Shown here piece after piece: positions 10,727 through 52,896 of a DNA stretch of 64,000 nt. Position numbers and translations under genes: made by a program. Where the stretch lies: NCBI GenBank assembly GCA_014138645.1, contig JACJIB010000006.1, positions 389,258 through 453,257 of the forward strand. The letters run 5' to 3'. The stretch's first letter is position 1. Each line of letters starts with the position of its first letter. A model generated the notes under the pieces. The model searched no databases. It was not told the DNA's origin and saw only the letters and a list, made by a program, of their open reading frames with translations. This DNA comes from Methylorubrum thiocyanatum (lineage in GTDB: Bacteria; Pseudomonadota; Alphaproteobacteria; Rhizobiales; Beijerinckiaceae).

Positions 10727-10785
10727 GACGCGGCCCGTCAAGAGACTTATCTACCACTCGATACAAAACTTGGAGCTTGCGGACA

Positions 10786-33965: not shown

Positions 33966-34033
33966 GGATTTCAGAGGTCCGGGGAGGAGGCGATCGGAGC
34001 AGGAAACCTGCCGCATATTGACTGGTATTGACT

Positions 34034-34270: not shown

Positions 34271-34410
34271 AGACTGTCTCTGCCCGGCCAGATGGCAATA
34301 CAAGATCCCGATTGGCAGTGAGCCGAAGCAATACGGCCCATCTCAGATTGAAATACGGTCGGATCAACTTCGGAGAGAAAGGCCAGCCCAGGCGTCGCCC
34401 GGGCAACGGC

Positions 34411-35754: not shown

Positions 35755-35755
35755 C

Positions 35756-37540: not shown

Positions 37541-37566
37541 CTCTCAAAAGAAAAGACGGAAGAGGC

Positions 37567-38277
37567 TCAAAGAGTCTTGTCGATCATGCTGACCGGAACG
37601 AAGTCGAGCTTCTTTCCCTTCAAGTCGATGACGTCGCGGAAATCGTACTGCGCTCCGGGAAACCCGAGCATCCGCCAGCTGACGAGATCCTTGTTGCCGC
37701 CGTAGAGCGGGTCGGCGAGGAAGCCTTCGCGGACGTTCTGCAGGATCTGCTCGAACATCTCCTTCGCATCGACCACGCCGAGATCGAGCGTTCCGGCCTC
37801 CATCGCCGAGAGGACCTTGTCCTGCTCGGCCGGCGGCAGGGCCGCGTAGCCCTTGCCGTGGGCGGCGCGGCAGTGGCGATCGAGGGCGGCGAGGCCGAGC
37901 CGGTAGCGGTCGGCCGGGGCGAGGGGGGATTGGATGCCCTGCTCGGGGGTCCCCTTGACGAAGCGGCCGAGGCGGTACTGCGTCGCCGCCCGGCCGTAAG
38001 GTCCGGCCAGCTCACGGTCGATGAAGCGGACGCAGCCCGCCTCCTTGCCGCCGACGCTCAGGTCGTCCGCCGGGATGATCCGGTCGGCCATGGCACCTAC
38101 GGCCTCGGCTTCCGCGAGCGTGAAGAACACGAGGCGGTCCGGTCCCGGATCGGGCAACGGCGGAACCTTGGCCTGACCGGGCTCCCAGGGCATCTCGCCG
38201 CTGAGTTCCGCAGCCTGCGCGGTGGAGGCGTTGCCAGCAAGGGCCGCCATCGAGGCGAGGATTTGCCTTCTGTTCAT
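37567..38277 (-). CDS. Gluconate 2-dehydrogenase subunit 3 family protein
   Basis: A 236-residue small subunit with a Tat-type leader (MNRRQILASMAALAGNASTAQA) and the subunit-3 fold (FFTLAEAEAVGAMADRIIPADDLSVGGKEAGCVRFIDREL ... RLGLAALDRHC). It is first in the three-gene operon, ahead of the GMC subunit (26-base gap) and the cytochrome. The Tat signal is thought to export the FAD subunit by hitch-hiking. It identifies the complex as a membrane-bound FAD/cytochrome c dehydrogenase. Confidence 0.92.
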   Translation of the reverse strand: MNRRQILASMAALAGNASTAQAAELSGEMPWEPGQAKVPPLPDPGPDRLVFFTLAEAEAVGAMADRIIPADDLSVGGKEAGCVRFIDRELAGPYGRAATQYRLGRFVKGTPEQGIQSPLAPADRYRLGLAALDRHCRAAHGKGYAALPPAEQDKVLSAMEAGTLDLGVVDAKEMFEQILQNVREGFLADPLYGGNKDLVSWRMLGFPGAQYDFRDVIDLKGKKLDFVPVSMIDKTL

Positions 38278-38903: not shown

Positions 38904-39062
38904 GGCATTCCTCAGCCCTTGTCGTGACGCGCCTTCTTCGTCGGATTGGGCTCGAGCCCGCCACGCGCTTCCGCGACCGACCTCGGAACTCTCGCCGAGG
39001 ACGCAAGAGACCCTTGCCCCGGCGGCCAGCCACGATCGATTGTACCTCCCGTTTGCCTCCCT

Positions 39063-40769
39063 ATGCTGCCGCCGCCTTTCACCCGTCGATCCGCGCTCGC
39101 CGTGCTTGCCGCCAGCGGAGTTCTGCCCCCCATGTCGATGACCGTCGCAGCGGAGGCGCGTGCCGCCTCCGCGCCGACGCCGGCCCTCACGGTCGCGGCG
39201 CAATCCCGCTGGCTGTGCAACGGCGTCGCCGCCGCCCCGGACGGCACCCTGTTCCTCGGCCTGCCGCGCTTCCCCGACCACACCGCGACGCCCTCGCTCG
39301 TCAGGGTCGAGCCGGACGGGGCGCTGTCGCCGTTCCCCGGTGGGACGTGGAACGCCTGGAGCCGGGACGGCGACGGGCGCGAGACCTTCGTCACCGTGAA
39401 CGCCGTCCACGTGTTCAACGACGGCACGCTGTGGGTCGTCGATCAGGGCGCGGTGGGCGGTCAGGCCGTGCCGGGCGGGCCGAAGATCGTCCGTATCGAT
39501 CCCCGCACCGGAACCGTGCTCGCGGTGCTCCGCTTCGGCGACGACATCCTCCCGGCCGGCGCGGCGATGAACGACCTGCGCCTGCACGACCACATGCTCT
39601 ACGTCACGGATTCCGGGCTCGGCGGCCTCATCGTCCACGATCTCGCGGCGAACCGGACCCTGCGCCGCCTCTCGGGCCACCCGCTTCTGCGCAAGCCCGA
39701 GGGTGCGGCGCAGAAGGGGAAGGGCGGCCGCATCCTGGCCGATGCCGCCGACCGCCACCCGGCCGTCGCCAGCGACATGATCGAACTCGATGCCGACGGG
39801 GCCTGGCTCTACTGGGCGACGCCGACCGGGCCGGTCCGCCGGATCGCGACGGCTCTGCTCACGGACGAGAGCCTGACGGACGCCGACCTCGCGGCGGCGA
39901 TCCAGACCATCGCCGAGATCCCGACCATCGGCGGCACGGCGATGGACACGCTGGGCAACCTCTATCTCTCCGACGCCGAGAACCGCCGGATCGCCGTGCT
40001 GACGCCGCAGGGGCGGATGCTGACGCTGGTGCAGGACGACCGCTTGGTCTCGCCCGACGCGATCTGCATCGACGGGCAGCGGCGTCTGCTGGTTCCCGCG
40101 TCCCAGCTCGAGGATCTCGCCTCCGGAGCCGGCGGAGACGACCGGACGCGGGCGCCCTGGCAGGTTCTCGCCCTGCCGCTGCCGCGGGAACTGGCCGGCC
40201 TCCGGCTCGGTGAGGCGGTGACCGGCCGCTCGCCGCCGCGCGGTCTGTCCAACATCCACGGCATCGAGCATGTCGCGATGACGGTGCCCGACATGGAGGC
40301 GGCGATCCGCTTCCTTCAGGAGGCGTTCGGCGCGACGGTTCTCTACCGCCACCTCAAGCTGACGGACGAGCCGCTCACGGCCGCCGATGTCGGCCGGATC
40401 AACGGCCTGCCGGAGACCGCGACCCTGCGCGGCGCCTGCCAGATGCGCCTCGGCGACGGGGCCAATATCGAGCTGTTCCAGCTCACGGGAATCGCCCGCA
40501 CCGAGGCGGCGGAGATCAACGATATTGGGCTCAACCACTTCAGCCTGTTCGTGGACGACATCGCGCTGGCAACGGAGCGGTTCGCGGCCGCGGGCGGGAC
40601 GCTGCTCGACGGCCCCAACGACCTCGGCCTCAACGAGACCGGGGCGGGCAACCAGCTGTGGTTCGGCCGGATGCCGTGGGGCACCTGGGTCGAGTTCATG
40701 ACCTTCCGCTCGCCGCTCCGCTACGATGCCGGCGCGACCCAGGAGCGCCGGTTTCCGGCCCGCGGCTGA
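39063..40769 (+). CDS. Tat-exported beta-propeller (SMP-30/MRJP-like) fused to a VOC domain
   Basis: A 568-residue protein. The leader FTRRSALAVLAASGVLPPMS looks like a Tat signal. Residues about 45-390 form a six-bladed propeller like SMP-30/gluconolactonase or major royal jelly proteins (WLCNGVAAAPDGTLFLGLPR; HVFNDGTLWVVDQGAVGG; ATPTGPVRRIATALL; AMDTLGNLYLSDAENRRI). Residues about 410-550 are a vicinal-oxygen-chelate domain (GIEHVAMTVPDMEAAIRFLQEAFG ... GLNHFSLFVDDIALATERFAAAGG ... WGTWVEFMTF) with His, His and Glu as possible metal ligands. The two folds are rarely joined. A lactonase or lyase activity on a sugar-derived product is possible. It converges on the IclR gene, 7 bases apart. 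Confidence 0.85.
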   Translation: MLPPPFTRRSALAVLAASGVLPPMSMTVAAEARAASAPTPALTVAAQSRWLCNGVAAAPDGTLFLGLPRFPDHTATPSLVRVEPDGALSPFPGGTWNAWSRDGDGRETFVTVNAVHVFNDGTLWVVDQGAVGGQAVPGGPKIVRIDPRTGTVLAVLRFGDDILPAGAAMNDLRLHDHMLYVTDSGLGGLIVHDLAANRTLRRLSGHPLLRKPEGAAQKGKGGRILADAADRHPAVASDMIELDADGAWLYWATPTGPVRRIATALLTDESLTDADLAAAIQTIAEIPTIGGTAMDTLGNLYLSDAENRRIAVLTPQGRMLTLVQDDRLVSPDAICIDGQRRLLVPASQLEDLASGAGGDDRTRAPWQVLALPLPRELAGLRLGEAVTGRSPPRGLSNIHGIEHVAMTVPDMEAAIRFLQEAFGATVLYRHLKLTDEPLTAADVGRINGLPETATLRGACQMRLGDGANIELFQLTGIARTEAAEINDIGLNHFSLFVDDIALATERFAAAGGTLLDGPNDLGLNETGAGNQLWFGRMPWGTWVEFMTFRSPLRYDAGATQERRFPARG

Positions 40770-40776: not shown

Positions 40777-41658
40777 TCAGGTGCCGACCGCCATCGGCAC
40801 CGACCGGCGCGAGATCGCACCGAGGGAGGCGGTGAGGTCGCGCGCGACCGTCCGGTCTCCCGGAACCCGGCGCCGGCTCAGGTCGGCCAGCAGCGCGTCG
40901 CGCGTGGTGAGAACCGCCAGGATCAGCGCGTCATGCTCGACCTCGAACCGCGCCTCCGTGGTGGAGAGGCTGACCCCCAGAAGGTCGCCCGGACCGGGGC
41001 CGGCCTGGAGCGTGAAGGCGATGCAGCAGCGGCCCTGGACCAGTTCGGAATGCTCGACCGCGTAGCCGCGCAGGCGGGCTTCGGCGAGGTTGCGCAGGAG
41101 CGCCTCGGGATCGGTGATCGTGTTTCCGGTGAAGCGCCGGAGTTCGCCCCGCCCGTAGAGGGCGCGGATCTCCCCGTCGTCGAACCGGGCGAGCAAGGCC
41201 TTGCCCATGGCGGTGGCGTGGGCGGGCAGCCGCTTGCCGACCCGCGAGACCGCGAGCACCGAGTAGCGCCCCTCCTCGCGCATCACGTAGAGCACGTCCT
41301 CGCCCTCGATCGTCGCCACGCTCGCCGTCTCGCCGGTCCGCTGCGCCAGGGCGCGCAGGGTGGAGCGGACGCTCTCCTCGAACGGAACGTTGCTCTGGTA
41401 GGCGCCGCCGATCTCCGCCGCGGCCGAGCCGAGACGGTAGTGCAGGCTTCCCGAGATCCCGGGCGCGGCCTCCTCGACGACGAAGCCGCGGGTGCCGAGG
41501 GTCTTGAGGGTGCGATAGAGCAGCGAGCGCGAATAGGTCGTCCGCTCGATCAGTGCCGCCAGCGTCATCGGGCCGTCCGCCCGCGCGAGGGCGAGCAGGA
41601 GGTCGGCCGCGCAGGCGGCGGCCGGGGCACTATACTTGAGCTTCTCGTCGGATTGCAT
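40777..41658 (-). CDS. IclR-family transcriptional regulator
   Basis: A 293-residue regulator with an N-terminal winged HTH (PMTLAALIERTTYSRSLLYRTLKTLGTRGFV) and the IclR effector domain (LRALAQRTGETASVATIEGEDVLYV ... RLPAHATAMGKALLARF ... RGYAVEHSELVQGRCCIAFTL). It lies downstream of the HpcH aldolase on the same strand. Near-identical inverted sites in the aldolase/M24 promoter gap fit an IclR operator, so this protein probably controls the whole cyclitol cluster. ATG 41658 has GGGGAG 6 bases upstream. Its stop lies inside the palindrome TGATCCGGGATCA shared with the convergent gene's stop. Confidence 0.92.
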   Translation of the reverse strand: MQSDEKLKYSAPAAACAADLLLALARADGPMTLAALIERTTYSRSLLYRTLKTLGTRGFVVEEAAPGISGSLHYRLGSAAAEIGGAYQSNVPFEESVRSTLRALAQRTGETASVATIEGEDVLYVMREEGRYSVLAVSRVGKRLPAHATAMGKALLARFDDGEIRALYGRGELRRFTGNTITDPEALLRNLAEARLRGYAVEHSELVQGRCCIAFTLQAGPGPGDLLGVSLSTTEARFEVEHDALILAVLTTRDALLADLSRRRVPGDRTVARDLTASLGAISRRSVPMAVGT

Positions 41659-41703
41659 CGGCAACTCCCCGTCGTCGAGGATCGACCTCGCCGAGACGGC
41701 GCC

Positions 41704-42474
41704 TCACGTCAACGCCTTGACCGCCCGGATCGCCTGCTGCCCGCCCTGGGCGATGAAGGCGGAATCGGAGCCGATTCCGACGAAGGCGAAGCCCATCTGG
41801 ACGTAGCGCGCGGCGGTGGCCGCATCGCCCGCGAGCACGCCGGCCCCGATGCCGGCACCGCGGCAGGCGGTGACCACAGAGCGCAGGGCGGCGGCGAAAT
41901 CGGGCGCGTCGGGGGAGGGTGTCGTGCCGAGGGCCGCGGCGAGGTCCCGCGGCCCGACGAAGAGGACATCGACGCCGGGCGTGCGGGCGATGCGCTCCAC
42001 ATCCGACAGGGCCGGCTGCGTCTCGATCTGCACGATCGCCACCACGGCGTCGTTGGCGCGGCTGAGATAGTCGGGATCGAGGCCGAAGGCGGCGGCGGAG
42101 TGGTAGGTCGCGACGCCGCGGTCGCCCTGCGGCGGGTAGCGCAGGTGGCTGACGAATTCCGCCGCCTCTTCGGCGCTGTCGAGCCGGGGCGCCATCACCG
42201 CCTCGACGCCGAGATCGAGCACGCGGCCGCACCGGATACGTGTCGGTGTCTCGACGCGGACCGCCGTGCCGACGCCGTGGCGCTTGGCGACGGCGATCTG
42301 ACCGATCAGGTCGCGCTCGTTGCCCGCCCCGTGTTCGAGGTCGAAGAGCAGCCAGTCGAAGCCCGCGATCGCGCAGACCTCCGCCGCGACCGTCGAACCT
42401 AGGCCGACGAAGGTGCCGTAGGTCGTGCCCGACCGGACGAGTTCCCCGAACGGCATCGGTTTGGTGCCCACCAT
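41704..42474 (-). CDS. HpcH/HpaI-family pyruvate aldolase
   Basis: A 256-residue class II (metal-dependent) aldolase like HpaI and GarL, which cleave 4-hydroxy-2-oxo acids to pyruvate and an aldehyde. The conserved FDWLLFDLEHGAGNERDL, the PTRIRCGRVLDLGVEAVMAPRLDSAEEA region, VQIETQPALSDVERIARTPGVDVLFVGPRDLA (metal-ligand Glu and Asp) and FVGIGSDSAFI are present. It is divergent from the IolD/IolE operon and upstream of the IclR gene. With the enolase-superfamily dehydratase of that operon it can form a dehydratase-aldolase pair, as in glucarate breakdown. Confidence 0.93.
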   Translation of the reverse strand: MVGTKPMPFGELVRSGTTYGTFVGLGSTVAAEVCAIAGFDWLLFDLEHGAGNERDLIGQIAVAKRHGVGTAVRVETPTRIRCGRVLDLGVEAVMAPRLDSAEEAAEFVSHLRYPPQGDRGVATYHSAAAFGLDPDYLSRANDAVVAIVQIETQPALSDVERIARTPGVDVLFVGPRDLAAALGTTPSPDAPDFAAALRSVVTACRGAGIGAGVLAGDAATAARYVQMGFAFVGIGSDSAFIAQGGQQAIRAVKALT

Positions 42475-42491
42475 CTGCTGCGCCCCGCTAT

Positions 42492-42504
42492 TTCATATTT
42501 GAAC
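42492..42504. promoter_or_regulatory. Predicted IclR operator, aldolase side
   Basis: TTCATATTTGAAC lies 18 bases upstream of the aldolase start. It is the exact reverse complement of the site at 42620-42632 and is itself nearly palindromic (TTCA-N4-TGAA). A related half-site (TATGAAC) is at about 42546-42552. Confidence 0.6.
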
Positions 42505-42619
42505 TCAATGCTCAGACAATGAAGCATCCTGACATCCGGATTGCAATATGAACTAAAGGTGAAATTCTGGGTTGAACTGTCGATCATCTTGTTTTAGCAA
42601 TCATCGCAAGAAATGACTG

Positions 42620-42632
42620 TTCAAATATGAAC
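42620..42632. promoter_or_regulatory. Predicted IclR operator, catabolic operon side
   Basis: GTTCAAATATGAA is the exact reverse complement of the 42492-42504 site. It lies about 38 bases upstream of the M24-type gene, in an AT-rich gap shared by the divergent transcripts, so one regulator could control both directions. Confidence 0.6.
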
Positions 42633-42669
42633 CGCTAGCAGCTCCCTCGAAGGGAGCGCAGGAGGAGGC

Positions 42670-43803
42670 ATGACGCCGGAGCATCTGTGCGATCGGGATG
42701 TCGAGGCCGTCGTCGCGACGACGCCCGAGAGCGTCTTTCTGCTCTCCGGCCATCTCACGTGGCTGGGCGAGCGGATGCGGGGCTGGATGAGTGGCACTGA
42801 GGGCGACGCCGCCTTCCTGCCGGGATATGCCGTCCTGACCCGGGACGGTCGGGTCGGCCTCGCGGCAGGCGCGGTCACCCGGACGGCGGCCGAGGCCGCG
42901 GCGCCGGACAGTCTCGTGCTGTACGGCCGCGCTTGTCCGTCGGCCGGCGCCGACGATGCGCTGTCCCGGTTGCTCGCCGAGATGGGCCTTACCGACCGCA
43001 CCATCGGGGTGGAATGGGACGGGGCCGGCCGCGGCCTCGCCCGATGCCTGGAGTCGGTCGCGACCCGGGACGCCTCCCTCTGGCTGCGCAACCTGCGCGC
43101 GGTGAAGACCGAGGCGGCGCTCGACACGATGCGGGCGGCCGCGACGGCGACCGAGGCGGCCATGGCGGCGGTGTTCGCCGCCTGGACCGCCGACGCGGAT
43201 CCGCGGGCGCTGCGGACGGTGTTCCGCGTTGCTCTGGCGGAGCGGGATTGCGACTTCGACCATCTGGTCTACGGAGCGCCCGGCGGCGGCGTGTGCGACG
43301 CCGTGAGGCCGCCGGAACCGGTCACGGCCCTCTTCTTCGACGCCGGCGCCCGCTGCGGGCGCTACTACTCGGATACCGGCACGACGCTGACGCGCACCGG
43401 CTTGACGGCCGCCGACCGCGAGCGCCACGCCGCGGCCCTCGCCGCGCTGGCGGTGGCCGAGCGCGCCCTGCGGCCGGGCCAGCGCGCCTCCTCGGCCTGG
43501 TTGGCGATGCAGGACGAGGCGCGCCGGATTCCGGGCCTCGTCGCGCAGGGGCACGGCCTCGGTCTCGGCATCCGTGAATGGCCGCTGCTCGGTCCGCCGA
43601 GCGACGCCGTGCTGAGCGACGGCCTCGGCACCTACCCGGTCGATGCCGTCCTCGCTCCCGGCATGGTGGTGAACCTCGAGGCCGGCGGGCACTTCGCCGA
43701 CGGCACCTCCGTGCAGATCGAGAAGAGCTTCGTCATCGGCGCCGACGCCGCCGTCCCGCTGGCCGCGCAGCCGCGCGACGTCCCGATCCGCCTCCCGGCC
43801 TGA
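42670..43803 (+). CDS. M24-family metallopeptidase-like (pita-bread) protein
   Basis: A 377-residue protein with an N-terminal creatinase-like domain and a C-terminal pita-bread domain as in Xaa-Pro aminopeptidase, creatinase and DMSP lyase DddP. All five dinuclear metal ligands can be seen: Asp in LFFDAGA, Asp in YYSDTGTT, His in GHGLGLGI, Glu in VNLEAGG and Glu in QIEKSF. Some family members are not peptidases. As the first gene of the IolD-IolE operon it may hydrolyse a C-N or ester bond, or a lactone, in the cyclitol substrate; this is inference. GAGG-like sequence precedes the ATG. Confidence 0.85.
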   Translation: MTPEHLCDRDVEAVVATTPESVFLLSGHLTWLGERMRGWMSGTEGDAAFLPGYAVLTRDGRVGLAAGAVTRTAAEAAAPDSLVLYGRACPSAGADDALSRLLAEMGLTDRTIGVEWDGAGRGLARCLESVATRDASLWLRNLRAVKTEAALDTMRAAATATEAAMAAVFAAWTADADPRALRTVFRVALAERDCDFDHLVYGAPGGGVCDAVRPPEPVTALFFDAGARCGRYYSDTGTTLTRTGLTAADRERHAAALAALAVAERALRPGQRASSAWLAMQDEARRIPGLVAQGHGLGLGIREWPLLGPPSDAVLSDGLGTYPVDAVLAPGMVVNLEAGGHFADGTSVQIEKSFVIGADAAVPLAAQPRDVPIRLPA

Positions 43804-43849
43804 TCCCACCCCCGAACCGATCCCCACCCTGACGAAAGGCACTCTGCCT

Positions 43850-45724
43850 ATGCCCCGACAGAAGACCATCCGGCTGACGACTGCCCAGGCGATCCTGCGC
43901 TATTTCGCGGCCCAGCACACCCGACGCGACGGACGCGAATTGCCGCTCATCGGCGGCGTGTTCGGCATCTTCGGCCACGGCAATGCCAGCGGCTTCGGCC
44001 ACGCCCTCGCGACCGGAGCCGGCGGGCTCACCTACCACCAGGGCAAGAGCGAGCAGGCGATGGTCCATGCGGCGATCGGCTATGCCCGCGCCCACAACCT
44101 CGCCTCGACCCTGGCGGTGACGGCCTCGATCGGACCGGCCTCCACCAACCTCGTCACCGGTGCCGGTACCGCCACGCTCAACCGCGTGCCCGTGCTGCTT
44201 CTGCCGGGCGACGTCTTCGCCAGCCGCCGTCAGGGCCCGATCCTGCAGGGGCTGGAGATGGCGGGCAGCTACGACATGACCGTCAACGACACCCTGCGTC
44301 CGGTCAGCCGCTTCTTCGACCGCATCACGCGGCCCGAGCAGATCATCCATTCCCTGCCGCACGCCACCGCCGCGCTGCTCGACCACGGCCAGGCCGGCGC
44401 CGTCACCGTGGCCGTCTGCCAGGATGTCGAGGGCGAGGCGTTCGACTTTCCCCTGGCGCTGTTCGAGACGCGCGTCCACGACCTCGAGCGGCTCGCGCCC
44501 TCCGAATCCGTCCTGGCGGCCGCCGCCGAACGGGTACGGACCGCGCGCAAGCCCATCATCATCGCGGGCGGCGGCGTCCGCTACGCCGAGGCGGAGGCGA
44601 GCCTCGCCGCCCTGTCCAACGCCTGCGGCATCCCGGTGGTCGAGAGTTTCGCGGGCCGCGGCGCCGGCCGGGCGGCGAGCCTCAACGCGGGCGGCATCGG
44701 CTTCATCGGATCGCCGGCCGCCAACGAACTCGCGACCGAGGCCGACCTCGTGCTCGCCGTCGGCACCCGCCTGTCGGACACGCTGACCGGATCGCACACG
44801 CTGTTCCAGAACCCCGATGTCAGCTTCGTGGCGCTGAACCTCGCCGAGCGCGACCTGTGCAAGATGGGCGCGCTGGCGCTGCGGGCCGATGCCCGGGCCG
44901 GGCTCGACGGGCTCGCGGCGGCCCTGGAGGGCCACACCGCCCCGGCCGAATGGCGGGACCGCGCCGACCGGGCGATCGTGCGCCACGTCGCCCGGGTCGG
45001 CGAGATCGTCGGGACCGAGAATCGCCGCATGACCGGCTACGAGGCGGTCGCCGAGATCAAGGACGCCGCCCGCCGCGAGGACCGCGTCGTCTTCTCGTCC
45101 TCGACGGCGATCGGGCAGGCCCACACCATCTGGGACAGCCGCAGCGATGCCCCGGTCGACATGGAATACGGCTTCAGCTGCATGGGCTACGAGATCCCGG
45201 CCGCCCTCGGCGCGGCGATGGCCGGCACGGTGAAGGGCCGCATCCTCGCGCTCATCGGCGACGGCACCTTCCTGATGGGCAACACCACCGAGATCGTCAC
45301 GGCGATCCAGGAGGGCCTCGCCTTCACGATCGTGGTCGTCGTCAACCGCGGCTGGCAGTGCATCCGCGGCCACCAGCTCGGCTCCTACGGCGAGGAGTTC
45401 GGCACGCAGTTCCGCCGCCGCGAGGGGAACGCCCGCAATCTCACCGGCGAGACGCTCGCCATCGACTACGTCGCCAATGCCCGCTCGCTGGGCGCCGACG
45501 GCGTCGACGTGCACAGCCGCGCCGAGCTCCGGGCCGCCCTGGAGCGGGCGCGCCGTTCCGACCGGCCCTTCCTGATCGCCGCGCATGTCGAGGACGCGCC
45601 GCTGCCGATCGAGAGCGGCGCCTGGTGGGAATTCGGCATTCCGCAGGCGGATGCCCCCGAGAGCCTGCGCGAGACCCGCGCCGCCTTCGAGGCGGCCGCC
45701 GCGAAGCACCGCTGGTTCGTCTGA
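43850..45724 (+). CDS. iolD: 3D-(3,5/4)-trihydroxycyclohexane-1,2-dione acylhydrolase
   Basis: A 624-residue thiamine diphosphate enzyme. IolD opens the diketo-inositol ring to 5-deoxyglucuronate in inositol catabolism. The N-terminus is characteristic (TTAQAILRYFAAQ ... GGVFGIFGHGNASGFGHAL ... TYHQGKSEQAMVHAAIGYA), the central domain carries KPIIIAGGGVRYA, and the TPP-binding motif is ALIGDGTFLMGNTTEI. The length matches the family (about 610-645). It lies 46 bases after the M24-type gene and 11 bases before the enolase-superfamily gene, in one operon. Confidence 0.95.
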   Translation: MPRQKTIRLTTAQAILRYFAAQHTRRDGRELPLIGGVFGIFGHGNASGFGHALATGAGGLTYHQGKSEQAMVHAAIGYARAHNLASTLAVTASIGPASTNLVTGAGTATLNRVPVLLLPGDVFASRRQGPILQGLEMAGSYDMTVNDTLRPVSRFFDRITRPEQIIHSLPHATAALLDHGQAGAVTVAVCQDVEGEAFDFPLALFETRVHDLERLAPSESVLAAAAERVRTARKPIIIAGGGVRYAEAEASLAALSNACGIPVVESFAGRGAGRAASLNAGGIGFIGSPAANELATEADLVLAVGTRLSDTLTGSHTLFQNPDVSFVALNLAERDLCKMGALALRADARAGLDGLAAALEGHTAPAEWRDRADRAIVRHVARVGEIVGTENRRMTGYEAVAEIKDAARREDRVVFSSSTAIGQAHTIWDSRSDAPVDMEYGFSCMGYEIPAALGAAMAGTVKGRILALIGDGTFLMGNTTEIVTAIQEGLAFTIVVVVNRGWQCIRGHQLGSYGEEFGTQFRRREGNARNLTGETLAIDYVANARSLGADGVDVHSRAELRAALERARRSDRPFLIAAHVEDAPLPIESGAWWEFGIPQADAPESLRETRAAFEAAAAKHRWFV

Positions 45725-45735
45725 GGGAGGGGATC

Positions 45736-46944
45736 ATGAAGGGTACGACGATCACGCGCGTCTCGACGCTGCGCAGCGCCCTGCAGCCGAACCTGCTGTG
45801 GGTGGAGATCGAGGATGCCGACGGGGCCGTCGGCCTCGGCGAGACCTTCTCGCTGGCCGAGACGGTGGAATCCTACATCCACGAAGGCGCGGCCGATTAC
45901 CTGCTCGGTAAGGATGGGGGCGACATCGCCGGGCACTGGACGACGCTGTTCCGCCAGCGCGGCCGCTCCGGCATCGGCGCGGAGACCCGGGGTGCGGCCG
46001 CCATCGACATCGCCCTGTGGGACCTGCTCGGCCACCGCACGGGCCTGCCGCTGTGGCAGCTCCTCGGCGGCCGCTCGCGGGAGCGGATCCGCGTCTACAA
46101 CACCTGCGGCGGCCCGAACTACGTGCGGGCCGCGGCGGTGGCGGGGCGGCAATATACCGGTGACTTCGTTCGCGACCGCTACGACGACCTCTGGGGCTTC
46201 ATGAACGAGCCCGAGCGGCTCGCCGAGAGCCTGCTCGCCGAGGGCGTGCGCCATATGAAGATCTGGCCCCTCGACGACATCTCCGTCGTGAACCAGGGGC
46301 TGCACATCTCGGCGGCGGAGCTGCGCACGGCGCTCGCCCCGCTCGCCCGCATCCACAAGGCCTTCGAGGGCGAGATGGAGGTCGCCCTCGAGATGCACGC
46401 GCGCTGGACCGTGCCGGTAGCAAGCAAGATCGCCCGGGCCGCCGAGCCGTACCAGCCGATGTGGATCGAGGATCCGGTCAAGCTCGACAACCTGCGGGCC
46501 ATCGACGAGGTCTGCCGCGCGACGACCATTCCCGTCCTCGTCGGCGAAACCCAGGGCTCGCGCTACCCCTATCGCGAGATCCTCGAACGCACGGGTGTCG
46601 GCATCATCATGTCCGACCCGTGCTGGACCGGCGGCGTGACCGAGCTGCGGCGCATTGCGGACCTTGCGGCCACCTACCAGCGCGCCTTCACGCCCCATGA
46701 CTGCACCGGCCCGATCGGGCTCGCTGCCGGCGCGCATGTCGCCCTGCACGCAGAGACGGCGATCTTCCAGGAATTCGTCCGCGCCTTCTACCACGGCTGG
46801 TACCGCGAAGTGAGCGAGGGCCTGCCGGTGATCGAGAACGGCTGGCTCAGCGCGGCCGACCGGCCCGGCCATGGCGTCACGATCCCCGACGAAGTCCGCA
46901 AGCGCGCCGAATGGTCGATGCGCACGAGCCGGAAGGGAGCCTGA
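45736..46944 (+). CDS. Mandelate racemase/enolase-superfamily sugar acid dehydratase
   Basis: A 402-residue enolase-superfamily enzyme. The capping domain (TRVSTLRSALQPNLLWVEIEDADG ... GLGETFSLAETVE) is followed by a barrel with RHMKIWPLDD (catalytic Lys region), metal ligands in VALEMHARW, MWIEDPV and LVGETQGSR, and the catalytic His in FTPHDCTGPIGLAA. This pattern fits acid-sugar dehydratases that abstract the alpha proton of a carboxylate and lose the beta hydroxyl. It sits between iolD and an SDR gene, where canonical inositol operons have isomerase and kinase genes. Substrate is inferred to be a six-carbon deoxy-aldarate. Confidence 0.9.
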   Translation: MKGTTITRVSTLRSALQPNLLWVEIEDADGAVGLGETFSLAETVESYIHEGAADYLLGKDGGDIAGHWTTLFRQRGRSGIGAETRGAAAIDIALWDLLGHRTGLPLWQLLGGRSRERIRVYNTCGGPNYVRAAAVAGRQYTGDFVRDRYDDLWGFMNEPERLAESLLAEGVRHMKIWPLDDISVVNQGLHISAAELRTALAPLARIHKAFEGEMEVALEMHARWTVPVASKIARAAEPYQPMWIEDPVKLDNLRAIDEVCRATTIPVLVGETQGSRYPYREILERTGVGIIMSDPCWTGGVTELRRIADLAATYQRAFTPHDCTGPIGLAAGAHVALHAETAIFQEFVRAFYHGWYREVSEGLPVIENGWLSAADRPGHGVTIPDEVRKRAEWSMRTSRKGA

Positions 46945-46946
46945 CC

Positions 46947-47771
46947 ATGGCGAACCCGACTTCGACGCCCGGCCTGCGCGAGGGCCTGAGCCACACGCCG
47001 CGGCACCGCCCGTCGGACCGGCTCGCGGGCGAGACGGTCGTGATCACCGGTGCCGGCAGCGGCGTCGGGGCCGAGACGGCCCGCATCCTCCACGCCGAGG
47101 GCGCCCACGTCGTCCTGAACGGGCTCACCCCCGAGCGGCTTGAAGCGGTCGCCGCCGAACTCGGCACCCGCGTGACGGTCCTGCCCGGCGACGTCACCGA
47201 CCTCGCCTATCTGGAGCGCCTCGCGGAGCGGGCGCAGGCCATCGGCGGGGGCCGCGTCGGCGTCCTCGTGAACAATGCCGGCGCCACGATCCGCGGCTCC
47301 CTGGCCGAGACCACCCCCGACAACTTCATGTCGACGGTGGAGCTCAATTTGAACGGGGCGGTGCAGCTCACCCGCCTCCTGGCACCGGCTATGTGCGAGG
47401 CGCGGCAGGGATCGATCGTCAACATGGCGTCGATCACCTCGCTGAAAGGCTTGGGAGGTGCTGTCGCCTACACGGCCTCCAAGGCGGGCATGACGGGGGT
47501 CACCCGGGCGCTGGCCGTCGAGCTGGCCCCGTTCAACGTCCGCGTCAACGCGGTCTGCCCCGGTGTGATCGATACGCCGATGACCTGGGAGCACGCCGAG
47601 GCGCAGCCCGATCCGGCCGCCCACTACACGATGCTCCGGGCACGCCAGCCGATGAACCGGCTCGCCTCCGCCCGCGACTGCGCCCTGGCGGTGCTGTTCC
47701 TGGCGAGCCCGGATTCCGCCTTCATCACCGGGGCCGCGCTACCGGTCGATGGCGGGCGCCACATCGCCTGA
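46947..47771 (+). CDS. Short-chain dehydrogenase/reductase
   Basis: A 274-residue NAD(P)-dependent SDR. The cofactor motif TGAGSGVG, the NNAG motif (VLVNNAGATIRG), catalytic Ser in VNMASITS and Tyr-x3-Lys (YTASKAG) are all intact, and the C-terminus ends with the FITGAALPVDGG motif. In this operon it may oxidise the cyclitol or a downstream aldehyde/alcohol. It starts 2 bases after the dehydratase stop with GGAAGGGAG upstream. An earlier in-frame GTG at 46911 is unlikely. Confidence 0.93.
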   Translation: MANPTSTPGLREGLSHTPRHRPSDRLAGETVVITGAGSGVGAETARILHAEGAHVVLNGLTPERLEAVAAELGTRVTVLPGDVTDLAYLERLAERAQAIGGGRVGVLVNNAGATIRGSLAETTPDNFMSTVELNLNGAVQLTRLLAPAMCEARQGSIVNMASITSLKGLGGAVAYTASKAGMTGVTRALAVELAPFNVRVNAVCPGVIDTPMTWEHAEAQPDPAAHYTMLRARQPMNRLASARDCALAVLFLASPDSAFITGAALPVDGGRHIA

Positions 47772-47833
47772 GAACGCCGACCTCGGCCCGCGACGACAAG
47801 CCGACACAGATCAACCCAGGGAGGAACGAGCAC

Positions 47834-49267
47834 ATGTCCCATGGAGTCATGGCGCCGGACACGGTCGCCCTCGATTTGCCGGAACTCGGCAAGGGCCGTC
47901 ACACCGCCCGGCTCAGCCTGATCGGCGTGATCGCCACCTTCGGCGGGCTGCTGTTCGGCTACGACACCGGCGTGCTGAACGGGGCGTTGCCCTACATCGC
48001 CGACTATTTCCGCCTGTCGCCGCTTCAGGAGGGGCTGGTCACCTTCAGCCTGCTGATGGGCGCAACCCTCGGCGCCTTGGTCAGCGGCCGGATCGCGGAC
48101 CGGATCGGCCGTCGCGCCACCATCACCGGCCTTGGAGCGCTGTTCTTCGTCGGCGCGCTCGGCTGCGTCGTGGCGCCGACCTACCACATTCTCATCGCGT
48201 TCCGCGTGGTGCTCGGCCTCGCGGTGGGCGGTGCGTCGGTCACGGTGCCGGTCTACCTCTCCGAGGTCGCGCCCACGGAGCAGCGCGGCAGCATGATCGG
48301 CCGCAACGACATCATGATCGTGTCGGGCCAATTCCTGGCCTTCCTGTTCAACGCCATCATCGGCAACCTGCTGGGTGACAGTGATTCCGTCTGGCGCCTC
48401 ATGCTCGCCGTCGCACTCTTGCCCGCCATCGTCCTGTTCGTCGGGATGCGTCGGATGCCCGAGAGCCCGCGGTGGCTGATGGCGCAGGGCCGCTCCGCCG
48501 AGGCGCTCCAGGTGCTGCGAACGGTCCGCTCCGAGGAGCGCGCGCAGGCAGAGATGGAGGAGGTGCGCGCCCTCACGAAGATTGACGCGGTCGCGCGCTC
48601 GACGGGTTGGCGCGACCTCCTGGCGGAACCGTGGTTGGTCCGCCTGCTCTTCGTCGGAATGGGCCTCGCGGCGCTGGCGCAGCTCACCGGCATCAACTCG
48701 GTGATGTATTACGGGACGCAGGTGTTGGAGCAGGCGGGCTTCACCCGGAACACCGCCCTGATCTTCAACGTCCTGAACGGCGTCATCAGCATCGTCGCGA
48801 TGCTGATCGGCGTGGCGGTGGTCAACCGCGTCAACCGCCGCACGATGCTGATCCTCGGCTTCGGCTGCGTGACGGCGCTCCACGTCTTTATCGGCGTGAC
48901 CGGCATCGTGCTGCCCATCGACAACCCGATCCGACCCTATCTTCTGACCATCGGAATGCTCGGCTTCCTGGGCTTCGTGCAGGGCACGATCACACTCGTC
49001 GGCTGGATCGTGATGTCGGAGATCTTTCCGCTGCGTGTCCGCAGACTGATGATCGGCGCGAGCGTCGCCGTTCTCTGGCTGACCAACGCGCTGATTTCGC
49101 TTGTTTTTCCTCCCGTTGTGCAGGCCCTCGACTTCGCGACGTTCCTGTTGTTCGGCGGCTGCTGCCTGTTCGGGGTGATCTTCACCGCACGCTGGCTGCC
49201 GGAGACGCGGGGCCGAAGCCTCGAATCGATCGAAGCCGAACTGGCGACGGGAGGCACCCGTGCCTGA
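47834..49267 (+). CDS. MFS sugar/cyclitol transporter (sugar porter family)
   Basis: A 477-residue twelve-helix importer of the SP family, which includes inositol and hexose:H+ symporters. Signatures are FGYDTGVLNGALPYI, GRIADRIGRR, PVYLSEVAPTEQRG, PESPRWLMAQGR, QLTGINSVMYYG and WLPETRGRSLESIE. AGGGAGGAACG precedes the ATG at 47834. Being inside the iolD-iolE operon, it most likely imports the cyclitol by proton symport. Its stop overlaps the iolE start by 8 bases. Confidence 0.94.
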   Translation: MSHGVMAPDTVALDLPELGKGRHTARLSLIGVIATFGGLLFGYDTGVLNGALPYIADYFRLSPLQEGLVTFSLLMGATLGALVSGRIADRIGRRATITGLGALFFVGALGCVVAPTYHILIAFRVVLGLAVGGASVTVPVYLSEVAPTEQRGSMIGRNDIMIVSGQFLAFLFNAIIGNLLGDSDSVWRLMLAVALLPAIVLFVGMRRMPESPRWLMAQGRSAEALQVLRTVRSEERAQAEMEEVRALTKIDAVARSTGWRDLLAEPWLVRLLFVGMGLAALAQLTGINSVMYYGTQVLEQAGFTRNTALIFNVLNGVISIVAMLIGVAVVNRVNRRTMLILGFGCVTALHVFIGVTGIVLPIDNPIRPYLLTIGMLGFLGFVQGTITLVGWIVMSEIFPLRVRRLMIGASVAVLWLTNALISLVFPPVVQALDFATFLLFGGCCLFGVIFTARWLPETRGRSLESIEAELATGGTRA

Positions 49268-50282
49268 ATCCATCCGACTCGGGGTTAGTCCGATCGCCTG
49301 GATCAACGACGACCTGCCGGAACTCGGGGCCGGAACGCCGCTGGAGCGCATGCTCCGCGAGGCCGCCGCGATCGGCTACGAGGGGATCGAGCTCGGCGGC
49401 ACCTTCCCCCGCGACCCCGAAGCCCTGTCCGCCCTCCTGGCGCCGTCCGGACTCGTCCTGGCGGCGGGATGGTACGCGAGCAGCCTCCTGACCGGCGATG
49501 CCGAGGAAGAGATCGAAGCGCTTCAGCCGCATCTCCGGCTGCTGCGGGCGATGGGCTGCGACGTCTTCATCGCCGCCGAGTGCTCGACCTCCGTCCATGG
49601 CTGCCGCGCCGTGCCCCTGTCCGACCGACCGGTCCTCGACGGGGCAGCTTGGCGCCGCTTCGGCCGGGATCTGACGCATCTGTCCGAGTACCTCGCGCGG
49701 GAGGGTTTCCGCCTCGCCTACCACCACCATCTCGGCACGGCCGTCCACGGCTTGGCCGACCTGACTGCCCTTCTCGCCTACACTCCGAGCCATGTCGGCC
49801 TCGTGCTCGACACGGGCCATGCTGTCCTGGGCGGAATCGACCCGGTCGCCGTGATCCGCGAGCACCCGGAGCGCATCGTCCATGTCCATTGCAAGGACGT
49901 GCGTCTGCCGGCCTTCGCCGCGGTCGAGGCGAGGGGCAGCTTCCTCGATGGCGTGCTGGCGGGCATGTTCACGGTGCCGGGGGACGGCAGCCTCACCTTC
50001 GGCCCGGTCTTCCGCGCACTCGCCGACATCAGGTATCGCGGCTGGCTGATCGTCGAGGCGGAGCAGGATCCCCGGATCGCCGATCCGCGCATCTACGGTC
50101 GGATCGGACTGGAGACCGTGCGTCGAGAGGCGGTCGGTGCGGGCTTGGCGGCGGGAACGGGGCTGGGCGGGGCACTCGCCCGCGCCGCGATCGAAGCGCC
50201 CGCGCCCCTCGACACGCCTTCGCAATCGCCGGTAGCGACGCCGCTTCCTCTCGCGGAGCCGGCCCTGTCCGGGCTCGCCTAG
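49260..50282 (+). CDS. iolE: Inosose dehydratase family protein
   Basis: A 340-residue xylose isomerase-like TIM-barrel enzyme. IolE removes water from scyllo-inosose (2-keto-myo-inositol) to give the diketone used by IolD. Typical are LGVSPIAWINDDLPELG, GYEGIELGGTFPRDP, LAYHHHLGTAVH, LVLDTGHAV, IVHVHCKDVR and a closing GWLIVEAEQDP with metal-ligand Glu and Asp residues. The start is GTG overlapping the transporter stop. About 45 residues of Ala/Pro-rich tail extend beyond the usual ~300-residue length. Confidence 0.93.
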   Translation: MPESIRLGVSPIAWINDDLPELGAGTPLERMLREAAAIGYEGIELGGTFPRDPEALSALLAPSGLVLAAGWYASSLLTGDAEEEIEALQPHLRLLRAMGCDVFIAAECSTSVHGCRAVPLSDRPVLDGAAWRRFGRDLTHLSEYLAREGFRLAYHHHLGTAVHGLADLTALLAYTPSHVGLVLDTGHAVLGGIDPVAVIREHPERIVHVHCKDVRLPAFAAVEARGSFLDGVLAGMFTVPGDGSLTFGPVFRALADIRYRGWLIVEAEQDPRIADPRIYGRIGLETVRREAVGAGLAAGTGLGGALARAAIEAPAPLDTPSQSPVATPLPLAEPALSGLA

Positions 50283-50341
50283 GACCCAGCCGTTCCGTCA
50301 AGCCGGGCCTCGAAGAGGCCGACTCCGCGCACATGGTGCGT

Positions 50342-51256
50342 TCAGCCCGCGCCGCCTCGGAGCGCGGCAGGCGGGGGCAGGAAGCGGTCGCGCTCCTCAC
50401 GGAAGCGCCGGGCGAGGAAGTCGCGGCAGGCGGCGATGCGGCGGCTGCCGTGATCGTCGGGATGCGACATCAACCAGTAGCTCCGCCGGAACGCCGTCTC
50501 CGGCAGGATGCGCACGAGGTCGGGCAGCGCCGCGGCGGCGAAGTCGTGCAGGATGCCGAGGCCGGCTCCCGCCCGCACCGCTTCCAGCTGCGCGACGGCG
50601 CCGACGCAGCGGAACACCCTGGCCACGCGATCCTGCAGGAAGGCGGTATAGTCCAGCGCCGAGGCGTAGGCGTAGTCGTCGACGCCGATCACCGCGGCAT
50701 GGCTTCCGAGATCCGCCACGCTCTCCGGCATCCCGGCTCGGTCGAGATAGGCCTTCGCCGCGTAGAGGCCGAGGCTGTAATCCGACAGCTTCGAGAGGAT
50801 CAGCCGGCCATGCGCCGGCCGGTCGAGCCCGATCGCGAGGTCCGCCTCCCGGCGCGAGAGCGAGAACGAGCGCGGAAGCGGCACGAGTTCGATCACGAGG
50901 TTGGCGTATCGGCTCGCGAACAGGCCGAGTTCCCGCGCCAGGAACAGGGTGCCGAGGCCGTCCGGAGCACCGATCCGCACCGTCCCGCTCGGCTCCGCCT
51001 CCTGCGCCCGCATCCGCGCGGCGACCGCCAGCACCTCGGCCTCGATCCGCTCCGCCACCGGGACGAGTTGCTCGCCCGCCTCCGTCAGCGCGGAGCCGTT
51101 CGGCCGGCGATGGAACAGCGGGGTGCCGAGCGCCGCTTCCAGCGCGTCGAGCCGGCGCGCCACCGTGGCGTGGTTGAGGCCGAGCCGACGGCCGGCTTCG
51201 AGCATCTGACTGTGCCGGGCGACCGCGAGGAAGACTTGCAGGTGGTCCCAGTTCAC
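50342..51256 (-). CDS. LysR-family regulator, divergent from mmsA
   Basis: A 304-residue LysR-type regulator. The winged HTH is at the N-terminus (LQVFLAVARHSQMLEAGRRLGLNHATVARRLDALEAALGTPLFHR) and the effector domain follows (GTVRIGAPDGLGTLFLARELGLF ... GLGILHDFAA). It is divergent from the aldehyde dehydrogenase gene across about 140 bases containing an AACGGT/ACCGTT inverted repeat, so it most likely activates that gene. It converges on the iolE end. Confidence 0.92.
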   Translation of the reverse strand: MNWDHLQVFLAVARHSQMLEAGRRLGLNHATVARRLDALEAALGTPLFHRRPNGSALTEAGEQLVPVAERIEAEVLAVAARMRAQEAEPSGTVRIGAPDGLGTLFLARELGLFASRYANLVIELVPLPRSFSLSRREADLAIGLDRPAHGRLILSKLSDYSLGLYAAKAYLDRAGMPESVADLGSHAAVIGVDDYAYASALDYTAFLQDRVARVFRCVGAVAQLEAVRAGAGLGILHDFAAAALPDLVRILPETAFRRSYWLMSHPDDHGSRRIAACRDFLARRFREERDRFLPPPAALRGGAG

Positions 51257-51289
51257 GTGTCCCTCGCCGAAGGGCTATAAAATCCGCAC

Positions 51290-51313
51290 AACGGTTCTAT
51301 GAAATATACCGTT
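51290..51313. promoter_or_regulatory. Predicted LysR binding site in the mmsA promoter
   Basis: AACGGT (51290-51295) and ACCGTT (51308-51313) form an inverted repeat with 12 bases of AT-rich spacer (TCTATGAAATAT). The position between the divergent regulator and dehydrogenase genes is as expected for LysR-type activation. Confidence 0.55.
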
Positions 51314-51396
51314 GAGCTTTATTTTTTGTAGGGCGATGAGCGGCCCGTCAATCTGCAGCGGCGTATGCCGCCCGACGCGTGACGAGAGGAAGCGCC

Positions 51397-52896
51397 ATGG
51401 CCACACCGATTCCCCACTTCATCGACGGCGCCCGCGCCCCCGGCCGCTCCGGCCGCTCCGCGCCCGTCTACAACCCGGCCACCGGCGAGGAGACCGGCGC
51501 GGTGGCTCTGGCGAGCCGCGACGAGGTCGAGGCCGCGGTCAGTTCGGCCCGCGCCGCCTTCCCGGCCTGGGCCGCCACGCCGCCGCTGCGCCGCGCCCGC
51601 ATCCTCAACCGCTTCCTGCGCATCCTCGAGGACCGCATCGACGAACTCGCCGCGCTCATCACCGCCGAGCACGGCAAGGTGCTCTCCGACGCCAAGGGCG
51701 AGATCCAGCGCGGCGCCGAGGTGGTCGAGTTCGCCACCGGCATTCCGCAGCTTCTCAAGGGCGAGGTGACGGAGAATGTCGGCACCCGTGTCGATTCCCA
51801 CTCCCTGCGCCAGCCGCTCGGCGTGGTCGCCGGAATCACCCCGTTCAACTTCCCCGCCATGGTACCGATGTGGATGTTCCCCGTCGCGCTCGCCTGCGGC
51901 AACTGCTTCGTGCTGAAGCCCTCCGAGCGCGATCCCTCCGCCGCGCTGCTGATGGCGGAATGGCTCAAGGAGGCCGGCCTGCCCGACGGCGTGTTCCAGG
52001 TGGTGCAGGGCGACAAGGAGGCGGTCGACGCGCTGCTGTACAGCCCCGGCATCAGCGCGGTGAGCTTCGTCGGCTCGACGCCGATCGCCCGCTACATCTA
52101 CGCCACCGCCACGAGCCAGGGGAAACGCGCCCAGGCGCTGGGCGGCGCCAAGAACCACATGATCGTCATGCCCGACGCCGACCTCGATCAGGCGGTCGAC
52201 GCGCTGATGGGCGCGGCCTACGGCTCCGCGGGCGAGCGCTGCATGGCGATCTCGGTGGCGGTGCCGGTGGGCGAGAAGACCGCCGACGCGCTGATCGAGC
52301 GGCTGATCCCGAAGGTGCGCGCCCTCAAGGTCGGTCCGGGCACCGACCCCGAATCGGAGATGGGTCCGCTGGTCACGCGCCAGCACTACGACAAGGTGCG
52401 TGGCTACATCGACCGCGGCGTGGCCGAGGGCGCCGAACTCCTGGTCGACGGGCGCGACCTGAAGCTCCAGGGCTACGAGGACGGCTACTTCGTCGGCGGC
52501 TCGCTGTTCGACCGGGTGACGCCCGACATGACGATCTACCGGGAGGAGATCTTCGGGCCGGTGCTCGCGGTGACGCGGGCCCCGGACTACGCGACGGCGG
52601 CGCAACTCATCAACGCGCACGAGTTCGGCAACGGCACCGCGATCTTCACCCGCGACGGCGACGCGGCGCGGGAATTCGCCCACGCGATCGAGGTCGGCAT
52701 GGTCGGCATCAACGTGCCGATCCCGGTGCCGATGGCGTTCCATTCCTTCGGCGGCTGGAAGGCCTCCTTGTTCGGCGACCACCACATGCACGGGCCGGAG
52801 GGCGTGCGCTTCTATACGCGGCTCAAGACGATCACGACGCGCTGGCCCACCGGCATCCGCGCCGGCGCGGACTTCGTCATGCCGACGATGCAGTGA
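51397..52896 (+). CDS. mmsA: Methylmalonate-/malonate-semialdehyde dehydrogenase (CoA-acylating)
   Basis: A 499-residue aldehyde dehydrogenase of the MmsA/IolA group, which turns malonic semialdehyde to acetyl-CoA and methylmalonic semialdehyde to propionyl-CoA. Family features are [23 protein letters not shown], the catalytic Cys in [14 protein letters not shown], and the ending [24 protein letters not shown]. It follows the inositol-type operon and is divergent from its LysR regulator. It could complete the pathway by removing malonic semialdehyde. GAGAGGAAG precedes ATG 51397. Confidence 0.94.

What the first reader, a model, noticed from the sequence alone, without database searches (positions are those of the whole stretch)
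40777..52896. Candidate non-phosphorylating cyclitol/inositol pathway: IolE-IolD plus enolase-type dehydratase plus HpcH aldolase plus MmsA
The operon has IolE and IolD but, within the window, no IolB isomerase, IolC kinase or IolJ aldolase. In their place are an acid-sugar dehydratase and a divergent pyruvate aldolase under probable shared operators. Known chemistry fits: IolD gives 5-deoxyglucuronate; oxidation of its aldehyde would give a 2-deoxy-hexarate; dehydration would give 4-hydroxy-2-oxoadipate; HpcH-type cleavage would give pyruvate and malonic semialdehyde, which MmsA converts to acetyl-CoA. No kinase is needed. The order of steps and the aldehyde oxidation (SDR or MmsA) are my inference.
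Basis: partly seen in the sequence, partly recalled or inferred. Interest (0 to 1): 0.78.

Follow-up and report, generated by a model that had tools for sequence, protein, structure and literature searches.

The report
Kinase-free inositol breakdown gene cassette
A Methylobacterium-like bacterium carries a compact gene set that appears to break down inositol-like ring sugars by oxidation, water removal and carbon-carbon cleavage instead of the textbook phosphorylation route; the chemistry is predicted, not yet tested.

Summary
Window 40777-50282 encodes an IclR regulator and HpcH/HpaI aldolase, divergent from M24 hydrolase, IolD, enolase-superfamily (MR) dehydratase, SDR, sugar MFS and IolE; LysR and MmsA follow. 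The genome (5.63 Mb, 100% complete) has no IolB/KduI, no IolC above cut-off and no DUF2090-type IolJ. The cassette recurs in order in two more genomes of the genus, with the same operator pair; against one of them all eight genes are under purifying selection. MmsA-LysR is not part of the conserved unit.

A possible first step lies upstream: a GMC dehydrogenase with cytochrome c and OprB porin. Other unusual iolD clusters (Pantoea, Klebsiella, Acidiphilium, Shinella, Rhizobium) also carry an HpcH aldolase, suggesting a recurring lower branch of which I found no description.

The parts
40777..41664 (-). IclR-family regulator, probable regulator of the cassette
   Evidence: Pfam IclR_C 121 bits; 96.6% aa identity in G201
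41704..42474 (-). HpcH/HpaI class II aldolase, proposed 4-hydroxy-2-oxoadipate (or enantiomer) aldolase
   Evidence: Pfam HpcH_HpaI 134.5 bits; HpaI 192.8 and GarL 190.4 bits, both below equivalog cut-offs; motifs D45-x-E47-H48, R73, E151, D177 (positions, residue roles recalled)
42475..42669 (.). Divergent promoter region with two copies of GTTCAAATATGAA (42492-42504 -, 42619-42631 +)
   Evidence: the exact or 1-mismatch sites of the extended pattern in G000 lie only here
42670..43803 (+). M24-family metal hydrolase, role unknown, five metal-ligand motifs present (ligand roles recalled)
   Evidence: Pfam Peptidase_M24 66.6 bits; weak prolidase match; motifs
43850..45724 (+). IolD-like ThDP hydrolase, highly divergent
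   Evidence: TIGR04377 688.3 bits, cut-off 715; 45 of 185 conserved columns changed
45736..46944 (+). Enolase-superfamily (MR subgroup) acid-sugar dehydratase, proposed 5-deoxyglucarate dehydratase
   Evidence: Pfam MR_MLE_N and MR_MLE_C; galactonate dehydratase 200 bits, cut-off 311; motifs K175-I-W, E219-x-H221, E245, E271, D294, H321 (positions, roles recalled)
46947..47771 (+). SDR oxidoreductase, proposed oxidation of the IolD product at C1 (or of the cyclitol)
   Evidence: glucose 1-dehydrogenase subfamily 222.4 bits, over cut-off 215; best solved relatives annotated glucose/ribitol dehydrogenase 158 bits, sulfoquinovose 1-dehydrogenase 124.6 bits
47834..49267 (+). Sugar-porter MFS transporter
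   Evidence: TIGR00879 327 bits, cut-off 237.8
49260..50282 (+). IolE inosose dehydratase
   Evidence: TIGR04379 350 bits, cut-off 290; solved IolE 9zmu E=1.6e-75
50342..51256 (-). LysR regulator, divergent from MmsA; not part of the conserved cassette
51397..52896 (+). MmsA, CoA-acylating (methyl)malonate-semialdehyde dehydrogenase; the only copy over cut-off in this genome; linkage to the cassette not conserved
   Evidence: TIGR01722 715.5 bits
34411..38277 (-). Upstream syntenic genes: gluconate-2-DH-type subunit 3 (37567-38277), GMC oxidoreductase (35756-37540), cytochrome c with several domains (34411-35754): candidate periplasmic cyclitol dehydrogenase
   Evidence: Pfam; synteny in G201 and G1073; no cassette operator within 2 mismatches there
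32472..34016 (-). OprB carbohydrate porin next to the GMC genes
   Evidence: Pfam OprB 298 bits; syntenic
38946..40769 (+). MRJP-VOC fusion protein, probably exported (signal judged by eye, start uncertain); possible lactonase, role unknown
   Evidence: Pfam MRJP and Glyoxalase; syntenic

Best explanation
A rare, probably inducible catabolic cassette for inositol or a close cyclitol that replaces the phosphorylating IolB-IolC-IolJ branch by an oxidative, kinase-free one. Proposed order: the cyclitol is oxidised to an inosose (by the GMC dehydrogenase encoded upstream, or a Gfo/Idh enzyme); MFS uptake; IolE dehydrates it; IolD opens the ring to 5-deoxyglucuronate (or an epimer); the SDR oxidises C1, giving 5-deoxyglucarate, perhaps through a lactone; the MR-type dehydratase removes water to give 4-hydroxy-2-oxoadipate; the HpcH aldolase splits it into pyruvate and malonic semialdehyde; MmsA makes acetyl-CoA. 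Shown here: gene content, absence of IolB/IolC/DUF2090 from the genome, conserved linkage, operator pair, motifs, selection. Inferred: every intermediate and every substrate assignment.
For: No IolB/KduI, IolC above cut-off or DUF2090 in the complete genome. The eight-gene cassette is collinear in G201 and G1073; 3 of 111 genomes of the genus have this IolD, and the 3 others with an IolD at E 1e-100 carry IolB, IolC and IolE beside it. dN/dS window vs G201 is 0.08-0.22 for all eight genes. Two operator copies in the HpcH/M24 promoter of all three genomes. IolE over cut-off. The aldolase scores about equally to HpaI and GarL, whose known substrates bracket 4-hydroxy-2-oxoadipate (general knowledge). 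MmsA is the sole copy over cut-off in this genome. Besides window and L121, 13 of 108 other IolD loci show neither IolB nor IolC, and 3 of these 13 (L142, L144, L145) have an HpcH aldolase; it also stands near iolD in L190, L191, L192 and L205.
Against: No biochemistry. IolD is below its equivalog cut-off and is the most divergent of 121 sequences, so 5-deoxyglucuronate as product is unproven. Nearest solved relatives of the dehydratase (2pod, 4dx3, 3dip) bear no named substrate. MmsA lies outside the stretches of about 50 kb read around the cassette in G201 and G1073. The M24 hydrolase fits no step. The GMC genes have no cassette operator. 10 of the 13 other IolB/IolC-free loci have no HpcH hit in the stretch held, several being cut by contig ends. 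G201 and G1073 look nearly alike here, so they are hardly two independent comparisons.
Confidence: 0.55

Rival explanations
1. The cassette degrades a cyclitol other than myo-inositol (another stereoisomer, a methylated or otherwise substituted cyclitol); IolD opens a different cyclic dione and the product is an epimer or analogue that IolB could not handle. The downstream logic is the same, the intermediates differ.
For: IolD departs from 42 of 175 columns conserved at 93% or more in 119 other IolDs, 41 of the 42 alike in G201, and the pair sits on the longest branch of the tree. The next most divergent IolDs are those of L119, L146, L142, L145 and L144, clusters that lack IolB/IolC nearby or, in L146, have an annotated iolB but an added ALDH and no IolC hit. 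M24, MRJP-VOC and amidohydrolase genes nearby are unexplained.
Against: IolE passes the inosose dehydratase cut-off; HpcH and MmsA fit the C6 acid of the inositol route.
Confidence: 0.3
2. Two separate modules under one promoter: an acid-sugar pathway (MR dehydratase, SDR, aldolase) and a partial inositol pathway, the latter completed by unrelated isomerase and kinase genes elsewhere.
For: In 4 of 5 MR-relative loci viewed (L120, L186, L187, L189; not L188) an SDR lies within two genes and no iolD is annotated in the stretch; an overlapping MR-HpcH pair occurs in aminotransferase operons (L203, L204).
Against: No IolB match and no IolC above cut-off in the genome; gene order interleaves the two sets (IolD-MR-SDR-MFS-IolE) and is kept in three genomes.
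Confidence: 0.1
3. Canonical chemistry with non-orthologous replacements of IolB, IolC and IolJ outside the window.
For: Non-orthologous replacement cannot be excluded by family models; class II aldolase type IolJ was not searched.
Against: Best PfkB hit matches ribokinase slightly better than IolC; no KduI-family match at all.
Confidence: 0.05

Closest known systems
Canonical bacterial myo-inositol pathway (IolG-IolE-IolD-IolB-IolC-IolJ-IolA)
   Same: IolE, IolD homologue and MmsA/IolA; ends in malonic semialdehyde to acetyl-CoA
   Different: No IolB, no IolC above cut-off and no DUF2090-IolJ in the genome; dehydratase, SDR and HpcH aldolase instead; predicted products pyruvate plus malonic semialdehyde with no phosphorylation
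Thermotoga maritima inositol pathway (Rodionova et al. 2013; seen only as a reference-list entry, content recalled)
   Same: Departs from IolB/IolC after inosose formation
   Different: Recalled: hydrolyses the inosose without IolE/IolD and runs into hexuronate metabolism with a KDG kinase; here IolE and IolD are kept
Sulfoglycolytic Entner-Doudoroff pathway (start of abstract of PMC12133307 seen in the listing; the remaining steps recalled)
   Same: Works like it: SDR oxidation at C1, dehydration, aldol cleavage to pyruvate plus a C3 aldehyde, then aldehyde dehydrogenase; the window SDR matches SQ dehydrogenase chain 9gwu at 124.6 bits, though other SDRs score higher
   Different: Substrate comes from a ring-opened cyclitol; enolase-superfamily rather than IlvD/Edd dehydratase (recalled)
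Type-B iolD clusters found here (Pantoea L142, L144; Klebsiella L145, L192; Acidiphilium L191; Shinella L205)
   Same: iolD together with an HpcH aldolase; no iolB or iolC annotated in the stretch shown for L142, L144, L145, L192, L205
   Different: SSADH-like ALDH and 2-hydroxyacid dehydrogenase, no enolase-type dehydratase annotated; Pantoea aldolase only 28% identical to the window's; L191 has an iolC at its end and L205 ends inside iolD

Membership tests
Canonical iol pathway | IolE over curated cut-off | tested here: met
   350 vs 290 bits
Canonical iol pathway | IolD over curated cut-off | tested here: not met
   688.3 vs 715 bits; the other four genome hits score 196 bits or less
Canonical iol pathway | IolB present | tested here: not met
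   TIGR04378 0 of 1 genome, control rang in 3 of 14 genomes; PF04962 0 of 2, control in 6 of 14
Canonical iol pathway | IolC present | tested here: not met
   best 93.9 vs 300 bits; that protein scores 99 bits to ribokinase
Canonical iol pathway | IolJ aldolase present | tested here: inconclusive
   DUF2090 type 0 of 2; class II FBA type not searched
Canonical iol pathway | IolG present | tested here: not met
   best 116 vs 355 bits in 2 genomes; distant Gfo/Idh enzymes exist
Canonical iol pathway | MmsA/IolA present | tested here: met
   715.5 vs 448.5 bits
HpcH/HpaI aldolase family | Pfam domain and catalytic motif residues | tested here: met
   134.5 vs 25 bits; motifs (roles recalled)
HpaI or GarL equivalogs | curated equivalog score | tested here: not met
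   192.8 vs 368.8 and 190.4 vs 406.75 bits
MR/enolase acid-sugar dehydratases | both Pfam domains, metal ligands and catalytic His motifs | tested here: met
   motifs (roles recalled)
Galactonate dehydratase equivalog | curated equivalog score | tested here: not met
   200.2 vs 311 bits
5-deoxyglucarate pathway as proposed | enzyme activity on the named acids | not testable with these tools
   needs assay
Thermotoga inositol pathway | IolO epimerase present | not tested
   genome not searched; only the ten window proteins were scanned, where IolE gives 20.5 vs 300 bits

The most novel reading that the evidence does not exclude
A general, phosphate-free oxidative lower branch of cyclitol catabolism exists, in which the IolD product is oxidised at C1 and cleaved by an HpcH-type aldolase. 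It has arisen at least twice: with an enolase-type dehydratase (this window, giving pyruvate) and with an oxidation instead of a dehydration (Pantoea, Klebsiella, Acidiphilium, Shinella, Rhizobium; predicted to give hydroxypyruvate and then glycerate). Surveys that demand three of iolBCDE miss the window type by construction.
Probability: 0.45. Interest if true: 0.78.

Novelty: new variant of a known kind. Interest (0 to 1): 0.62.

Why it matters
If right, inositol carbon can be harvested without ATP investment, yielding pyruvate and acetyl-CoA; it gives a function to unassigned enolase-superfamily and HpcH enzymes, and it means that genome surveys which define inositol users by at least three of iolBCDE (PMC9430895, passages seen) undercount them. 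The prediction is sharp: two purified enzymes and two small acids decide it.

Tried and rejected
Dead ends: the single-sequence AlphaFold model of the M24 protein was unusable (mean pLDDT 36.5) and was not searched. Class (1 of 385) and phylum (1 of 398) searches found only the window's own genome, but used strict limits (E 1e-149 and 1e-145) and samples. M24 had no plasmid match at E 1e-10. A site like the cassette operator lies between LysR2 and the Gfo/Idh gene of G201 (1 mismatch), but genome-wide, at up to 2 mismatches of the extended pattern, G000 has 7 matches (reversed-pattern control 1) and G201 10 (control 3), so I did not build on it; the locus of the G000 ortholog of that Gfo/Idh gene has no site within 3 mismatches. 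MmsA as aldehyde oxidase of 5-deoxyglucuronate was considered and set aside for lack of evidence. Literature: ten searches used; no paper in the held library combines inositol with 5-deoxyglucarate, inositol catabolism with 4-hydroxy-2-oxoadipate, or inositol with HpcH and iolE; in the others I saw listings and starts of abstracts and found no description of this route there. Three papers were opened for passages only. Most subscription papers are not held.
Full report
OBSERVATION. Family scans give IclR, HpcH/HpaI aldolase, M24 hydrolase, IolD, MR-type enolase-superfamily enzyme, SDR, sugar-porter MFS, IolE, LysR, MmsA. IolE and MmsA pass curated cut-offs; IolD scores 688.3 against 715. tblastn finds neither IolB nor IolC in the 64 kb window. 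In the whole genome (5,626,317 bases, 29 contigs, 100% complete) IolB gives 0 matches, KduI/IolB Pfam 0 in G000 and G201, DUF2090 0 in both, IolC at best 93.9 bits against 300, a protein that fits ribokinase slightly better. IolD has no second copy (the other four hits score 196 bits or less). The class II type of IolJ was not searched.

ORGANISM. The top-ranked plasmid match for both halves of the window tested is Methylobacterium aquaticum, and a genome of the same genus (G1050) has a contig of 458,070 bases, the length of Methylobacterium nodulans pMNOD02.

CONSERVATION. In 111 genomes of the genus, 6 have an IolD at E 1e-100: G000, G201 and G1073 with this divergent type (96-100%), and G1076, G1050, G1035 with 42-44% types that have IolB, IolC and IolE beside them. 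In 298 genomes of the family, 113 have an IolD at E 1e-120, but only G000 and G201 exceed 45% identity. G201 and G1073 carry IclR-HpcH-M24-IolD-MR-SDR-MFS-IolE in the same order and strands, flanked by the same genes (MRJP-VOC, subunit 3, GMC, cytochrome c, OprB, MCP on one side; LysR2 and amidohydrolase on the other). G201 and G1073 look nearly alike here (two flanking genes 100% identical; promoter nearly identical; no full alignment made), so they count as little more than one independent comparison. Window against G201, dN/dS is 0.08 (MR) to 0.22 (MFS). IolB absence was tested in G000 and G201, not in G1073.

UNIT AND REGULATION. The divergent promoter 42475-42669 holds GTTCAAATATGAA twice; both copies stand at the same places in G201 and G1073 (one with a single change) while many neighbouring bases have changed. 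In G000 the exact or one-mismatch sites of the extended pattern occur only here. Between IolE and LysR2 the genomes differ: LysR-MmsA in the window, an MFS and a Gfo/Idh dehydrogenase in the other two. MmsA is therefore not part of the conserved unit, though it is the only copy over cut-off in G000, and G201 has two elsewhere.

ENZYMES. The MR protein has K175-I-W, E219-x-H221, E245, E271, D294, H321; from recalled knowledge of galactonate-dehydratase-type enzymes these are the metal ligands and the acid and base. Its best solved relatives, 2pod, 4dx3 and 3dip, are unnamed in function. The aldolase keeps D-x-E-H, R, E and D motifs and scores about equally to HpaI and GarL. IolD keeps E68, GDG470-472 and N499 (roles recalled) but differs at 42 of 175 columns that are at least 93% conserved in 119 other IolDs, 41 of them alike in G201. 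Counted over all 121 (one row per distinct sequence; the G201 duplicate removed), it departs at 45 of 185 columns, the median being 2; the next are L119 (26), L146 (25), L142 (24), L145 and L144 (23), then 16 or fewer. L146 has an annotated iolB and a PfkB kinase, so divergence does not map strictly on loss of IolB. The tree puts the pair on the longest branch (2.88 changes per column), though treekit warns that long branches may be misplaced.

CHEMISTRY. The missing oxidation is best given to the SDR, which belongs to the glucose-1-dehydrogenase subfamily by cut-off and resembles, among many SDRs, SQ 1-dehydrogenase. That leaves cyclitol oxidation to the GMC/cytochrome c/subunit 3 genes just upstream with their OprB porin, or to a Gfo/Idh enzyme; neither is shown, and the GMC genes lack the operator.

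PARALLELS. Among 110 fetched loci of at least 6 kb with an IolD, 15 show neither IolB nor IolC; 5 of these have an HpcH aldolase: the window, L121, and plasmids of two Pantoea and one Klebsiella strain (several of the 15 are cut by contig ends, and the genes may lie elsewhere in those genomes). The plasmid ones carry iolD-iolE-SDR with an SSADH-like ALDH, HpcH aldolase and 2-hydroxyacid dehydrogenase. The same trio stands near iolD in K. pneumoniae L192, Acidiphilium L191 (which also has an iolC at the end of the stretch) and Shinella L205 (stretch ends inside iolD). Rhizobium L190 has no ALDH hit in 49 kb; it has iolD with an SMP-30 lactonase and an SDR, while hydroxyacid dehydrogenase and HpcH remain side by side about 11 kb away; several of its genes are annotated in pieces. 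The swap of ALDH for SDR plus lactonase is what one expects if the IolD product is oxidised at C1. The Pantoea and Rhizobium aldolases are 28-30% identical to the window's, so this looks like parallel use rather than one inherited module.

LITERATURE. The survey PMC9430895 (passages seen) requires at least three of iolB, C, D, E in a cluster, which excludes a two-of-four cluster. No held paper was found that joins the proposed intermediates with inositol. The Thermotoga pathway paper was seen only as a citation.

VERDICT. Real, conserved, rare in the genomes sampled, and best explained as an IolB/IolC-independent cyclitol pathway; the exact substrate and intermediates are open. New variant of a known kind.

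Noticed in passing
L142:4237-12573; also L144, L145, L192, L191, L205: A second kind of iolD cluster: SSADH-like ALDH, HpcH aldolase and 2-hydroxyacid dehydrogenase near iolD (with iolE and SDR where the stretch reaches), mostly without iolB/iolC nearby. Possible chemistry: a 2-oxo-5-deoxy-hexarate split into hydroxypyruvate and malonic semialdehyde, then glycerate (inference).
   Followed up: partly
L190:20861-38900: Rhizobium sp. RCAM05350 plasmid: iolD with SMP-30 lactonase, SDR, IolG-like, hydroxyacid dehydrogenase and HpcH; several genes annotated in pieces.
   Followed up: partly
window 30655-38277: MCP chemoreceptor, OprB porin, cytochrome c, GMC oxidoreductase and subunit 3, syntenic in G201 and G1073: candidate dehydrogenase and sensing module for the same substrate.
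   Followed up: partly
window 38946-40769: Fusion of an MRJP (Yellow-type) propeller and a VOC/glyoxalase domain, next to the cassette in all three genomes.
   Followed up: no
window 47775-50282: DNA identity to G201 drops from 94% to 87% at about 47,780, and dS is 0.32-0.43 for MFS and IolE against 0.09-0.22 for the other six genes, as if this end had a different history.
   Followed up: no
window 50342-52896: LysR-MmsA stands where G201 and G1073 have an MFS and a Gfo/Idh gene; a Gfo/Idh ortholog (86%) sits elsewhere in G000 (C4).
   Followed up: partly
L203:7889-9837 and L204:7889-9819: Overlapping MR-type and HpcH aldolase genes in aminotransferase operons of Agrobacterium and Mesorhizobium plasmids: such pairs recur outside cyclitol pathways.
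   Followed up: no
L133: The only IolD locus with IolB/IolC, among the 110, that also has an MR-type gene nearby (44% identity to the window's).
   Followed up: no
window 6186-11368: Region with an RND efflux permease, 88% DNA identity to a Methylobacterium aquaticum plasmid.
   Followed up: no
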